Shown one piece after another: positions 4,594 to 16,861 of a stretch of DNA of 64,000 nt (positions within the stretch are counted from its first letter, which is position 1; each line of letters opens with the position of its first letter). The stretch covers positions 3,596,001 to 3,660,000 of the forward strand of contig NZ_CP087164.1 in assembly GCF_021172045.1 (NCBI RefSeq), given 5' to 3'. A program made the position numbers and the translations under genes. Source of the stretch: Capillimicrobium parvum (GTDB taxonomy: Bacteria > Actinomycetota > Thermoleophilia > Solirubrobacterales > Solirubrobacteraceae). Below the pieces are notes generated by a model. It was not told the DNA's origin and searched no databases. It saw only the letters and a program-made list of their open reading frames with translations.

Positions 4594-7500
4594 CCGCCTC
4601 CCCGGTCGCCGCCGCCCGCACCGGCGGCACGAAGAACCGGCCCACGACGGGCACCTCCAGGAAGCCCTCGACGCTGGCGTAGAGCAGCGCGACCTTCGGC
4701 AGCGCGCCCAGGTCGTCGATGACCAGTGACCGCGGCAGCCACTCGGGATAGAACTTCGCGTTGAAGTCGCGCAGCGACTGGATCTGGAAGAACGGGTTCA
4801 GGCCGCGCGCGATCCGCCGTTCGACCCGGCCCCACACGCCGGCGTCCTGCGCGCTGTCGAGCAGGCGCCCCCAGGCGGCGAAGTTCAGCGACAGCCGCTT
4901 GACGCCCTCCTCGCGCAGCGCGACCGCGGCGTTCGCGATGAGGAACTCGGTCAGGCCGTTCTCGGAGTCCGGCTTGCGGCGCATGAGGTCGAGCGAGTAG
5001 CCCATCTCCTGCGCGTCGTAGGCGGGGATGAAGCGCAGGAACCCGGCGGGCTCGCCCGAGCGGTCGCGGGCCAGCGCGATGCGGAAGTCCGGGTTGACGC
5101 CCTTGACGTCCTCGCCCAGCTCCATCGTGAACCCGCGCTCCTCGGCGCCCTGGCGCCACATCTCGCTGATCGCGTTGAGCTGCGCGACGAGCTCCGGCGG
5201 CGCCTGGTCCTCGTGCAGCAGCTCGAAGCTGTGCTCGCGCCCGACGCGGTTGACCGCCTCGCGCACGGCCTTCATGCGCCGCCCCTCGAGCCGGAACTCG
5301 TCCGGGTGCAGGACCGCCTCGTCGCCGAGGTACAGGACGTGCATGCCCCGCTCGCGGTAGAGCTCGGCGTCCGCCTCGCGCACGGCGAGGAACGCGACGC
5401 TCCAGCCGTTGCCGCGGCAGAACTCGAGGAACTCGTCGAGCGTGCGCCCGGTGTCCTCGGGCGGCCCGACCGGGTCCGCGGCGACCATCGCATGCCCGCG
5501 CACGTACGCGTATGCGATCAGCGAGCGGCCGTCGGAGGAGAAGAAGTAGCTCTTGTCGCGGCGCAGGGCGAAGTACGCCAGCGTGTCCCGGCCGTAGGCG
5601 CGCACGATCTGGTCCGCGCGCCGGCGCGCGGACTCGTCGGGCGGCACCTTCTGCACGAGCGGCCGCAGCAGCAGGTAGAGCAGGATCAGCGCGCCGGCGA
5701 TGCCGAGCGCCAGCAGCGCGGTCGGGAAGAAGTCGTTGAACAGCTCCCGCTTGTACGTGTAGGTCCCGTTGAGGCCGATGAGCCCGCCGAAGATCGTCTT
5801 CAGCCCGCCGCCGATGCCGAGCCGCGGCTCCAGGTGGTTGGCCTGGGTCAGCAACGAGGCGAAGCCGAACGTGAGCACGACCGCGACGTACAGCGGGACG
5901 AACATCAGCACGTCGGCGAGCGAGCCCGGATCGCTGCGCGCCCGGAAGTCGGTCCGGTACCACAGCAGGGCGAAGAGCATCGCCAGGTCGACGAGCAGCG
6001 GGATCGGGTCGGGGCCCTTGAGGAGGTGCACGACCGCCGCCACGCCGAACAGCGCGACCGCGATGTACCACGCCCGCCGCCGCCCCAGGTACAGCTGGCG
6101 GGCGACCGCGATCAGCCCGATGCCGATGACGACCGAGATGACGAACGTCACCGCGCGGCTGGGGCGGTCGAGGAGGTTGCCGATCCCGAACGACCAGTCG
6201 ATCAGCGGGATCGAGGGCAGCAGCGACAACAGGCCGACGATCCCCGTCAGCCACGACAGCGGCTTCAGCGACACCGGCCGGCGGGTGGGCGCCCGGAAGG
6301 TCGGCGGCTCGACGGCGTGCGGCGGCGCGGGCGGCTCGATGACGCCGGCCTCCCCCGCCTCGGCGGCGACGTGCGTGACCCCCGCGCCGTCCGCCGCCGG
6401 CTGCGCCTCGGGCGCGCCCGCCTCCGGCCGCAGCGTCGGGAAGAGGATGACCTCGCGGATCGTCTCGACGCCGGTGAGCAGCATGACCAGGCGGTCCATG
6501 CCGATCCCGAGCCCGCCGGTCGGTGGCAGCCCGTACTCGAGCGCCTGCACGTAGTCGTCGTCGACGGGCTCGGCCTCGGCGTCCCCGCCCGCCTGCAGCA
6601 CCGCCTCGGCGCGGAACCGCTCGGCCTGGTCGACCGGGTCGTTGAGCTCGGAGTAGGCGTTGGCCAGCTCGCGGCCCGCGACCACCAACTCGAAGCGCTC
6701 CACCAGCGCGGGGTCGTCGCGGTGCGCCTTGGCCAGCGGCGAGGTCTCGCGCGGGTGGTCCATGACGAACGTCGGCTCGACGAGCAGGTGCTCGGAGCTC
6801 GCGTCGTAGACCTCGCTCATGATCTTGCCCGAGCCCCATACCTCGAGCCACTCGACCCCGAGCCTGTCGGCGATCGCGCGCGCGTCCTGCACCGGCATCG
6901 ACGGGTGCATGTCGACGCCCGCGTTCTCCTTGATGAGCTCGGCCATCGTCGCGCGGCGCCACGGCGGTTTGAGGTCGACGTCGCGGCCCTCGATCTGCAC
7001 GACCGTCGTGCCGAGGGCGTCCATCGCCGAGGCCGCGACGATGGCCTCGGTGAGCTCCATCATGTCGTGGTAGTCGCCGAACGCCTGATAGGCCTCGAGC
7101 TCGGTGAACTCGGGGTTGTGGCGCGTGTCGAGCCCCTCGTTGCGAAAGACCCGGCCGATCTCGAACACGCGGTTCATGTCGCCGACGATCAGGCGCTTGA
7201 GCGGCAGCTCGAGCGCGATGCGCAGCGTCATGTCGAGGTCGAGCGCGTTGTGGTGGGTGAAGAACGGCCGCGCCGCGGCACCGCCCGCCTGGCCCAGGAG
7301 GACGGGCGTCTCGACCTCGCGGAACCCGCGCTCGGTCAGCACCCGGCGCGTCGTGGCGATCACCTTCGACCGGATGTCGAAGATCTGGCGCGTGCGCTCG
7401 TTGGCGATGAGGTCGAGGTAGCGCTGGCGGTAGCGCGTCTCGGCGTCGGTCAGGCCGTGGCGCAGGTCGGGCAGCGGGCGCAGGGCCTTGGACAGCAGCT

Positions 7501-14080: not shown

Positions 14081-14600
14081 GCAGGAGCAGGCCGATGAGC
14101 GTCTTGGAGTCCTTGGAGCGGGCGATCGCGTCGTCGAGGCGGTCCAGCGGCCAGGCCACGACCTCGATGCGCTCCTCCTCGTCGGCGTCGGCGCCGGCGT
14201 CCGAGAGGCCGGTGGCGAGGTAGATGTGGATCTCCTCGTCCATCACGCCGCAGCTCGTGTAGAACGACTTCAGGTGCTCGAAGCGCTCGGCGCGCTTGCC
14301 GACCTCCTCGGCGAGCTCCCGCTGGGCGTTGGCCTCGGGCGACTCGCCCTCGACGTCGAGCTTGCCGGCCGGGATCTCGAGCATGTCCGCCTCCCCCACC
14401 GCCTGCCGGGGCTGCACGACGAGCCACACGTGGTCGTCCTCGAGCGGGATGGTCGCGACGGCGCCGGGATGGCGCACGATCTCGCGCTCCACGACCGCGC
14501 CGTCCTCGACGAAGCGGAACGCCACCTCGTCGACGCTGACGACCTTGCCCTCCCAGACGGTCCGCGGCTCACCGGCGGCCTCGAAATCGCGTTCGCTCAT
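14055..14600 (-). CDS. NUDIX hydrolase (ADP-ribose pyrophosphatase-like)
   Basis: 181 aa. The full Nudix box GX5EX7REUXEEVG is present in GKLDVEGESPEANAQRELAEEVG, and the protein resembles ADP-ribose/nucleoside-diphosphate-sugar pyrophosphatases (TVWEGKVVSVDEVAFRFVEDG at the N-terminus). ATG 14598-14600 overlaps the TGA of the DUF3866 gene (ATGA), implying translational coupling, although a TAGCCT hexamer also lies 7 nt upstream. In mycobacteria a gene of this family sits between pyrG and xerD, and the order here is compatible. Confidence 0.92.
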   Translation of the reverse strand: MSERDFEAAGEPRTVWEGKVVSVDEVAFRFVEDGAVVEREIVRHPGAVATIPLEDDHVWLVVQPRQAVGEADMLEIPAGKLDVEGESPEANAQRELAEEVGKRAERFEHLKSFYTSCGVMDEEIHIYLATGLSDAGADADEEERIEVVAWPLDRLDDAIARSKDSKTLIGLLLLKERLAGR

Positions 14601-15538
14601 CGCCCGGAGGCTAGGACCCGCCCGGCGGCTGCGGCGGCGGCGAAGAAGAGCGGGTCGTCGCGGCCCATCGAGCGCAGCGGCCACGGGTAGCCGTCCAGCG
14701 CGCCCGAGGCGACCCGCCAGTCGTGGCGGTCGTCCGGCGCCGATTGGCCCTCCGGCAGCGCGACGATGACCGGCGCCAGCAGCATCTCGAGCACGGTCCG
14801 CGTGTGGTGCGAGAGGCCGCGGTGGCGCTGGCGCGGGTCGGCGCTCGACATCCGCGCCACGACGAGCGTCGGGAGGCCGAGCGCCAGCGCGGCGTGCGCC
14901 GAGTCGAGCGCCGCAAGCCCGCCGTGGCCGAGCGCGGTCCCCGAGCCGAGGATGCCCGGCCCCGGCCCGCACGCGACCGCGTCGCAGCGCTCGAGGGCGG
15001 CGCACAGCCCGCCGGCGGTCGTGATCGCCTCGAGCTCGCCGCCGTATGCCGGCCCCGCCGTGACGTGGACCTCCAGCAGGCCCGCCTCGCGCAGCTCACC
15101 GGCGGTGCGCGACAGCCGGCCGGGCAGCGCACCGCCGGCCGTCTGCACGTAGCCGAGCCGCGCCCCGGGCGCGGCCTGGCCGAACGCCCACGCGAGCGCG
15201 GGAAGCTGGCCGTGCGCGCCGAACACGGCGACGGGACCGCGGGCGGCGAGCGGGTCGCCGTCGGCCGCGTGGACCGCGTGCTGCAGCGGCGTGTAGTTCA
15301 GCTTCATCACGTGCGCGCCCGAGCGATCGGCCGCCTCCAGCCCGCGGGTCAGGTTCACGGCGACGACGTCGTAGCCGCCCGATCCGAGGCCGAGCCCGCG
15401 CGCCTGCACGTTGACGACGACGTCGTCGCCCACCTGCGCCGGCGGGTGCAGCGCCGGGTCGCTCCACGCCGGGCCCAGGTCGGTCTGCAGCCAGGCGCCG
15501 TCGGCGGCGGTCACGGAGGCGCGGCGCAGCTCGAGCAC
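14597..15538 (-). CDS. DUF3866 family protein
   Basis: 313 aa of unknown function. The sequence has a Rossmann-like feel: [21 protein letters not shown], an Asp/Cys patch [25 protein letters not shown], and [26 protein letters not shown]. These conserved stretches match what is annotated as DUF3866 in actinobacteria and some Firmicutes. Start GTG at 15536-15538, 7 nt behind TACCGT. Its stop overlaps the NUDIX start by 4 nt, so the two are likely translated together. No signal peptide or membrane helix. Function not known. Confidence 0.8.
14608..14613 (-). promoter_or_regulatory. TAGCCT hexamer upstream of the NUDIX gene
   Basis: TAGCCT on the minus strand, 7 nt before the NUDIX ATG but inside the DUF3866 coding end; could give an internal leaderless transcript. 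Confidence 0.35.
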
Positions 15539-15596: not shown

Positions 15597-15618
15597 AAGT
15601 TGAATCCGGATTCAACTT
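15597..15618. promoter_or_regulatory. Perfect 22-bp palindromic operator
   Basis: AAGTTGAATCC is followed immediately by its exact reverse complement. It covers the -35 and most of the spacer of the acyl-CoA dehydrogenase promoter. The half-site core TGAAT...ATTCA resembles operators of TetR-type fatty-acid repressors such as Bacillus FadR. No regulator gene is adjacent. Confidence 0.75.
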
Positions 15619-15628
15619 GGTCTACGGT
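15600..15628 (+). promoter_or_regulatory. Promoter of the acyl-CoA dehydrogenase gene
   Basis: -35 TTGAAT (15600-15605), 17-bp spacer, -10 TACGGT (15623-15628), then 6 nt to the ATG. It is the most complete promoter in the window and predicts a leaderless mRNA. Confidence 0.65.
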
Positions 15629-15634
15629 CTGGCC

Positions 15635-16861
15635 ATGGACTTCGAACCCACCCAACGCTGCCGCGAGTTCAGCGAGCGCCTCGAGGCGTTCATGGATGAG
15701 CGCGTCTACCCCGCCGAGTCCGTCTACGGGGAGCAGCTGCACGCGGGCGACGACCCGCACGGACAGCCGGCCGTGATGGAGGAGCTCAAGGAGGAGGCGC
15801 GCGCCCGCGGCCTCTGGAACCTCTTTCACCCCGACCCCGCGTACGGCCCCGGCCTGACCTACAACGAGTACGCCCCGCTGGCCGAGATCAGCGGCCGCAG
15901 CTTCATCGCGCCCGAGGCGATCAACTGCGCCGCGCCGGACACGGGCAACATGGAGGTCCTGACGCAGTTCGGGACCGAGGAGCAGAAGGAGCGCTGGCTG
16001 CGGCCGCTGCTCGACGGCGAGATCCGCTCGGCGTTCGCGATGACCGAGCCGGACGTCGCCTCCTCGGACGCCACGAACATCCAGCTGCGCATCGAGCGCG
16101 ACGGCGACGACTACGTCCTCAACGGGCGCAAGTGGTGGACGTCGGGCGCGATGCGCGACCGCTGCCAGATCTTCATCGTCATGGGCAAGACCGACCCGGA
16201 CGGCCCCACCTACAAGCAGCAGTCGATGATCCTCGTGCCGCGCGACACGCCCGGCGTGACCATCGTGCGCAACCTCCCGGTGTTCGGCTACATCGACGCC
16301 GAGGGCCACGCCGAGGTGACGTTCGAGGACGTCCGCGTGCCGGCGTCCAACCTGCTCGCCGGCGAGGGCGACGGCTTCATGATCGCCCAGGCGCGGCTCG
16401 GCCCGGGACGCATCCACCACTGCATGCGGACGATCGGCGCGGCCGAGCGGGCGCTCGAGGCGCTGTGCCGGCGCGCGCTCGCGCGCGAGACGTTCGGCGC
16501 GCCCGTGGCGACGCGGTCGAACGTCATCGACTGGATCGCCGAGTCGCGGATCGACCTCGAGATGATCCGCCTGCTGACGCTGAAGACCGCGTGGCTCATC
16601 GACACGGTCGGCAACAAGCACGCGCGCACGGAGATCGCGGCGATCAAGGTCGCGGCGCCGACGCTCGCGCTGAAGGTCATCGACCGCGCGATCCAGGTCC
16701 ACGGCGGCGGCGGCGTCACCGACGACTTCCCGCTGGCGAAGATGTACGCGCACGTGCGCACGCTGCGGCTGGCCGACGGCCCCGACGAGGTGCACAAGCT
16801 GTCGATCGCGCGGCGCGAGCTGCGCCAGTACATGGTCGAGGCGCAGGCCGCCGTGGTCTGA
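15635..16861 (+). CDS. Acyl-CoA dehydrogenase
   Basis: FAD-dependent enzyme that introduces the alpha,beta double bond in acyl-CoA. 408 aa. The N-terminal helical domain is [22 protein letters not shown]. The flavin/substrate signature is [20 protein letters not shown], the middle beta domain has [11 protein letters not shown], and the C-terminal helices include [22 protein letters not shown] and [36 protein letters not shown]. The form resembles the ACAD10/11-like FadE branch. ATG 15635 is set by the promoter 6 nt upstream. A perfect palindrome suggests repression relieved by an acyl-CoA ligand (inference). It ends 3 bp from the convergent YdcZ gene. Confidence 0.95.

What the first reader, a model, noticed from the sequence alone, without database searches (positions are those of the whole stretch)
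15597..15634. Perfect 22-bp palindrome embedded in a complete promoter of an acyl-CoA dehydrogenase
Seen: arms AAGTTGAATCC and its exact complement; the left arm contains the -35 TTGAAT, the spacer is 17 bp and the -10 ends 6 nt from the ATG. A perfect 22-mer palindrome is very unlikely by chance in GC-rich DNA, and its core resembles TetR-family FadR sites. Inference: a lipid-responsive repressor encoded elsewhere controls this gene and perhaps a regulon with the same site.
Basis: partly seen in the sequence, partly recalled or inferred. Interest (0 to 1): 0.58.

Follow-up and report, generated by a model that had tools for sequence, protein, structure and literature searches.

The report
TetR operator controlling ACAD11-like lipid gene
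The palindrome is very probably the landing site of a specific repressor protein that switches one fat-breakdown gene on and off, and the likely repressor was found far away in the same genome; it looks like a newly recognised example of a familiar kind of bacterial switch.

Summary
Confirmed and largely explained. Palindrome, -35, 17-bp spacer, -10 and ATG are as described. A perfect 22-mer alone is not rare here (about 0.3 expected per 64 kb; two exist). Its sequence is what matters: it matches an operator found across Actinobacteria beside one TetR subfamily that neighbours orthologues of this gene. A matrix trained only on other orders scores it 31.3 bits (shuffle maximum 17.0). The window's genome encodes that TetR 3.5 Mb away. 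Within the genus, site and TetR are both present in two genomes and both absent in two, where the TetR's usual place is assembled without it. In distant genomes, a site without a nearby TetR went with a TetR elsewhere in 7 of 9, against 2 of 21 without a site (cut-off chosen afterwards). The enzyme is of the ACAD10/11-LvaC type; related regulons carry lactonase-family, ligase and APH-kinase genes. Most likely a repressor released by a catabolic intermediate; binding, repression and ligand are inferred. New member of a known kind.

The parts
15597..15618 (.). perfect 22-bp palindrome, proposed operator (core TTGAATCCGGATTCAA at 15600-15615)
   Evidence: 31.3 bits against the outgroup matrix
15600..15605 (+). 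-35 hexamer TTGAAT, inside the left arm
   Evidence: sequence; assignment by consensus, not mapped
15623..15628 (+). -10 hexamer TACGGT, 17 bp from the -35 and 6 nt from the ATG
   Evidence: a TANNNT at the same distance from the ATG in G001, G002, G011 and one base further in G003
15635..16861 (+). acyl-CoA dehydrogenase gene of ACAD10/11-LvaC type, 408 aa, probably leaderless
   Evidence: Pfam, nearest PDB ACAD11, active-site offsets
14597..15538 (-). divergent DUF3866 gene whose promoter may share the operator (start codon GTG 15538 presumed)
   Evidence: PF12982 E 2.3e-68; starts listed; control by the operator untested

Best explanation
The palindrome is the operator of a dedicated TetR-family repressor encoded in trans at G000:C1:109045-109650 (minus strand, 201 aa). 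A TetR dimer covers the -35 hexamer and most of the spacer, blocks RNA polymerase and keeps the probably leaderless acyl-CoA dehydrogenase gene off. A small-molecule intermediate of the pathway served by this ACAD10/11-type enzyme binds the TetR and releases it; a 4-hydroxyacyl-CoA, its acid or a gamma-lactone is the guess. Shown here: the sequence, the promoter geometry, the match to the TetR-linked operator, and the co-occurrence of TetR and site. Inferred: binding, repression, the ligand and the leaderless start.
For: TetR subfamily beside the orthologous gene in 31 of 80 named loci. Sharp spacing peaks of TTGA-Nx-TCAA at x=8 and x=14 in 29 TetR-linked outgroup loci, 25 and 25 against 5 in all at ten other spacings. 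Window site 31.3 bits, shuffles at most 17.0. G000 encodes the TetR, E 4.7e-87. Genus: TetR and site together in G000 and G002, neither in G001 and G003, whose flhB-flhA junctions are assembled without the TetR. Family: site of 15 bits or more within 1.5 kb upstream in 5 of 9 TetR-positive places (window included) and 0 of 55 TetR-negative. Named genomes: site without nearby TetR has the TetR elsewhere in 7 of 9, 2 of 21 without a site, at E <= 1e-85.
Against: No binding data. No second clear target and no autoregulatory site in G000. In G002 the dyad is one base shorter (N7) and scores -0.6 bits with the 16-bp matrix. In G012 (TetR-positive) no site was seen at the gene; in G042 and G047 the sites lie at a ligase/lactonase promoter more than 1.5 kb upstream. 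Five of the 21 site-less genomes have weaker relatives of the TetR, so the contrast shrinks to 7 of 9 against 7 of 21 at E <= 1e-40. A MerR promoter in G000 carries a 24.8-bit look-alike.
Confidence: 0.78

Rival explanations
1. The palindrome is an operator, but of another regulator (one of the about 70 other TetRs of this genome, or a MerR-type activator), and the match to the TetR-linked motif is convergence.
For: The genome has 72 TetR_N matches. A MerR gene has a similar dyad in its promoter (L002; 24.8 bits). Another TTGA-N8-TCAA motif (TTGACTNGCNAGTCAA) is in use in this genome, one copy next to a CN hydrolase-TetR gene pair.
Against: The centre ATCCGGAT fits the linked subfamily and not TTGACTNGCNAGTCAA (9-19 bits for five copies). 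TetR and site are lost together in the genus. The 17-bp spacer is ordinary, whereas MerR promoters usually have 19-20 bp (recalled).
Confidence: 0.15
2. The TetR binds here but acts as an activator, or mainly controls the divergent DUF3866 gene.
For: The intergenic region is about 96 bp, so the operator lies close to both genes. Some TetR-family proteins activate (recalled).
Against: The operator overlaps the -35 and spacer of the dehydrogenase promoter, the classic repressor position. In relatives the sites sit at dehydrogenase, ligase, lactonase and TetR promoters.
Confidence: 0.05
3. Chance palindrome without function.
For: Perfect 22-bp palindromes are expected about 0.3 times per 64 kb and a second one lies at 5612-5633. 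Most orthologues in the family lack it.
Against: 31.3 bits against an independently trained matrix, far above 5000 shuffles; position on the promoter; co-occurrence with the TetR.
Confidence: 0.02

Closest known systems
AccR of Streptomyces avermitilis (TetR repressor of accD1A1-hmgL-fadE4, echA8, echA9, fadE2)
   Same: TetR repressor of acyl-CoA genes with a 16-nt palindrome of two 5-bp arms and a 6-bp spacer (review PMC10933834, passages)
   Different: AccR motif is GTTAA-N6-TTAAC, here TTGAA-N6-TTCAA; the AccR paper is not held, so protein kinship was not compared
QsdR of Rhodococcus erythropolis (TetR; qsdA lactonase, qsdC acyl-CoA ligase)
   Same: TetR with phosphotriesterase-family and AMP-ligase genes, as beside the related TetR in L196, L197, L199; QsdR senses the lactone ring (PMC6262395, abstract and passages)
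   Different: The window has neither gene nearby; the QsdR structure 4za6 is not among the 60 of 260 PDB rows shown for this subfamily; QsdR's operator is not given as letters in the passages seen
ACAD10/ACAD11 and the lva operon (LvaA kinase, LvaC dehydrogenase)
   Same: Dehydrogenase of the same type (nearest PDB ACAD11; R/H/R/D conserved); an APH-type kinase beside the TetR-linked dehydrogenase in L098 and L233
   Different: In the window's genome no kinase is adjacent; three APH relatives lie elsewhere
FadR of Bacillus and Sulfolobus (TetR, acyl-CoA ligands)
   Same: TetR fold; SaFadR Z 18.6, Bacillus FadR Z about 18
   Different: EthR ranks higher (Z 20.5) and the fold is common to the family; sequence 39.9 bits against a FadR cut-off of 200

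Membership tests
TetR-family transcriptional regulator with palindromic operator | TetR_N DNA-binding domain in the proposed regulator | tested here: met
   PF00440 37.8 bits, cut-off 24, in the G000 protein
TetR-family transcriptional regulator with palindromic operator | palindromic operator overlapping the target promoter | tested here: met
   window 15597-15618 over the -35 and spacer
TetR-family transcriptional regulator with palindromic operator | binding, repression, release by a ligand | not testable with these tools
   needs bench work
AccR regulon | GTTAA-N6-TTAAC site | tested here: not met
   window arms are TTGAA/TTCAA; AccR motif
QsdR | sequence kinship to QsdR (PDB 4za6) | tested here: inconclusive
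   not among the 60 shown of 260 rows, nor in the 50 rows
FadR (Bacillus type, NF053878) | curated model cut-off of 200 bits | tested here: not met
   39.9 bits for L068 and 34.7 for the G002 protein; the G000 protein itself was not scanned with this library
ScbR-type autoregulator receptor (NF041196) | curated model cut-off of 150 bits | tested here: not met
   63.2 bits for L068 and 49.0 for the G002 protein
ACAD10/11-LvaC dehydrogenases | R/H/R cluster and catalytic D in place of the usual ACAD residues | tested here: met
   R254, H262, R265, D381 at the offsets of ACAD11 R626, H634, R637, D753
ACAD10/11-LvaC dehydrogenases | partner kinase making 4-phosphoacyl-CoA | tested here: inconclusive
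   three APH relatives, 36-39% identical, elsewhere in G000; substrate unknown

The most novel reading that the evidence does not exclude
A widespread actinobacterial TetR-operator pair dedicated to 4-hydroxy-acid and gamma-lactone catabolism (ACAD10/11-type dehydrogenase, APH kinase, phosphotriesterase-family lactonase, acyl-CoA ligase) that senses a 4-hydroxyacyl-CoA or lactone. In the window's lineage the regulon has shrunk to a single remote promoter, while the TetR gene sits unlinked between the flagellar genes flhB and flhA.
Probability: 0.3. Interest if true: 0.62.

Novelty: new member of a known kind. Interest (0 to 1): 0.45.

Why it matters
It assigns a specific regulator, operator and likely pathway to an otherwise anonymous dehydrogenase across Actinobacteria, and shows that a regulator can be traced from a palindrome although its gene lies 3.5 Mb away. 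If the ligand is a 4-hydroxyacyl-CoA or lactone, the TetR would be a candidate biosensor for the metabolites handled by ACAD10/11 in mammals. It also gives a testable rule: where the TetR is lost, the operator is lost.

Tried and rejected
Rejected: chance palindrome. Regulon in the same genome: the 16-mer with up to 3 mismatches gave the window site, a MerR promoter and one weak place. TTGAA-N4-7-TTCAA gave the first two only. The degenerate consensus with 2 mismatches gave 218 places against 24 reversed; only the first part was listed, and apart from the window and MerR sites most listed places are TCGAC-NNCG-like, which I take for coding sequence (not annotated one by one). The 22-bp form gave 11 places against 5 control, none fitting the consensus by eye.

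MerR control was considered because of L002; spacer length and the joint loss in the genus argue against it. QsdR: similar gene context, kinship not shown.

Literature: searches found no description of this TetR or its operator in the held open-access library. One search ran on six letter strings; 20 of 86 papers were listed, nearly all of them animal studies. The idea that M. tuberculosis Rv0230c-Rv0231-Rv0232 is the orthologous locus is recalled only; one search gave neither support nor refutation.

Rows and choices: of 49 TetR-less named loci, 30 were given, all 9 with a site and 21 of 40 without, chosen by hand. Five of those 21 genomes have weaker relatives of the TetR (E between 1e-62 and 1e-40) counted as absent at the 1e-85 line, which was set after seeing the result; counted at 1e-40 the split is 7 of 9 against 7 of 21. 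In one search three genomes with weaker matches (G155, G100, G135) were counted as TetR-negative; none is among the 64 upstream regions. Two of 66 dehydrogenase matches (G054, G113) lacked the N-terminus and were dropped. The Fisher value printed for 6 of 9 against 0 of 55 mixes two criteria (G002 by dyad, the rest by matrix) and is not used. Loci of close relatives are not independent, so p values are optimistic. 4za6 (QsdR) was not seen; not listed is not excluded.

Full report
Observation. The palindrome AAGTTGAATCCGGATTCAACTT lies at 15597-15618. TTGAAT is at 15600-15605, a 17-bp spacer follows, TACGGT is at 15623-15628 and ATG at 15635. Palindromes of 22 bp or more are expected about 0.30 times per 64 kb in this composition (first-order Markov model, 100 simulations), and another lies at 5612-5633. 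So perfection alone is weak evidence; the sequence and its place are the evidence.

The gene. It encodes a 408-aa acyl-CoA dehydrogenase whose nearest solved structures are ACAD11 (E 7e-139). ACAD10/11 and bacterial LvaC share an R/H/R cluster and a catalytic D (PMC12440821, passages); the window protein has all four at the same offsets (R254, H262, R265, D381). That paper assigns ACAD10/11 to 4-hydroxy-acid catabolism through a 4-phosphoacyl-CoA made by an APH-like kinase domain. Three APH relatives exist elsewhere in the window's genome. The same function for the window protein is inference.

Orthologues. A TANNNT element ends 6 nt from the ATG in G000, G001, G002 and G011 and 7 nt from it in G003, whether or not the palindrome is there (five genomes looked at). 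The short-leader promoter therefore seems independent of the operator. Most family members lack the dyad: TTGA-N4-10-TCAA within 150 bp upstream occurs in 2 of 9 TetR-positive and 0 of 55 TetR-negative places.

The regulator. In distant Actinobacteria the orthologous gene is often accompanied by one TetR subfamily (31 of 80 named loci). In 29 such loci outside Solirubrobacterales, TTGA-Nx-TCAA peaks at x=8 (25) and x=14 (25), with 5 in all at ten other spacings; in 36 loci without the TetR the numbers are 6, 6 and 11. The operator thus comes in a 16-bp form, as in the window, and in a 22-bp form close to TTGAAC-nTGAAn-CCGG-nTTCAA. In several Streptomyces and Nocardia loci the outer TTGAAC lies 17 bp from a TACGGT, as a -35 would. 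The half-sites look modular in 6-bp steps; the window's operator sits one step further upstream of its -10 than those. Over all 80 named loci, 22 of 31 with the TetR hold an exact site and 9 of 49 without; control spacings reach at most 5 of 31 and 4 of 49.

Matrix test. A symmetrised matrix built from those outgroup sites gives the window site 31.3 bits, against a maximum of 17.0 in 5000 shuffled upstream regions and 4.3 in 55 upstream regions of TetR-negative places. In up to 1.5 kb upstream, a site of 15 bits or more occurs in 4 of 8 further TetR-positive places (G157, G089, G092, G095; with the window 5 of 9) and in 0 of 55 TetR-negative ones. In G042 and G047 sites lie at a ligase/lactonase promoter further upstream. 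In G012 none was seen at the gene. In G002 the dyad is one base shorter and falls outside the matrix.

The trans-encoded TetR. A profile search of 146 family genomes finds the subfamily in 16 at E <= 1e-25; the window's genome has it at 109 kb (E 4.7e-87), 3.5 Mb from the palindrome. Within the genus, G000 and G002 carry both TetR and palindrome; G001 and G003 carry neither. The TetR sits between flhB and flhA. In G001 these genes are adjacent (about 160 bp apart) and in G003 another ORF fills the gap, so the absence is not an assembly gap. As a further test, 30 named genomes without a linked TetR were searched: 7 of 9 with a site have the TetR elsewhere at E <= 1e-85, and 2 of 21 without a site (Fisher p 0.0005). 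The two failures are a Neobacillus and a Rubrobacteraceae bin. The E line was chosen after the result; at 1e-40 the contrast is 7 of 9 against 7 of 21.

Regulon content elsewhere. Sites or linked genes include a phosphotriesterase-family protein, an AMP-binding ligase, an enoyl-CoA hydratase, SDRs, a zinc-type dehydrogenase, a MaoC dehydratase and APH kinases. This resembles qsd (lactonase and ligase under the TetR QsdR, which senses the lactone ring; PMC6262395, abstract and passages) and the lva pathway. The guess of a 4-hydroxyacyl compound or lactone as inducer follows from that context and is not tested.

In the window's genome. No second convincing target was found. A MerR promoter carries a 24.8-bit look-alike. 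The TetR gene itself has no visible site. The regulon here is probably one gene, perhaps with its divergent DUF3866 neighbour.

Structure. An AlphaFold model of the L068 TetR (mean pLDDT 90) is a TetR fold, closest to EthR (Z 20.5), with acyl-CoA-binding FadRs at Z about 18. This says nothing certain about the ligand.

Verdict. This is a TetR-operator pair of a well-known kind, with a specific regulator named and a plausible pathway; binding, repression and ligand remain to be shown.

Noticed in passing
G000:C1:307217, 1441235, 1845271, 4438526, 4522175, 4666472 (loci L134, L139, L141, L143, L144, L145): A second palindromic motif, close to TTGACTNGCNAGTCAA, recurs in the window's genome near two acyl-CoA dehydrogenase genes, an electron-transfer flavoprotein gene, an ATP-grasp ligase gene and a CN-hydrolase/TetR gene pair: apparently a separate fatty-acid regulon.
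   Followed up: partly
L002 1501-1516 (G000:C1:2073628-2073643): Promoter of a MerR-family gene carries a 16-bp dyad that also scores 24.8 bits with the TetR matrix; either MerR's own operator or a second TetR target.
   Followed up: partly
window 5612-5633: A second perfect 22-bp palindrome, entirely G+C-rich apart from its ends, inside predicted coding sequence.
   Followed up: no
L077, L083, L082, L089, L091, L093, L104, L105, L116 (Streptomyces, Nocardia, Janibacter): Operators with three half-sites in 6-bp register (TTGAAC-TTGAAn-CCGG-nTTCAA), which suggests overlapping dimer sites or cooperative binding.
   Followed up: no
G000:C1:109045-109650; G002:C113 (L229, L230, L276, L277): The TetR gene sits between the flagellar genes flhB and flhA in G000 and G002; the place is empty in G001 and holds an unrelated ORF in G003.
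   Followed up: yes
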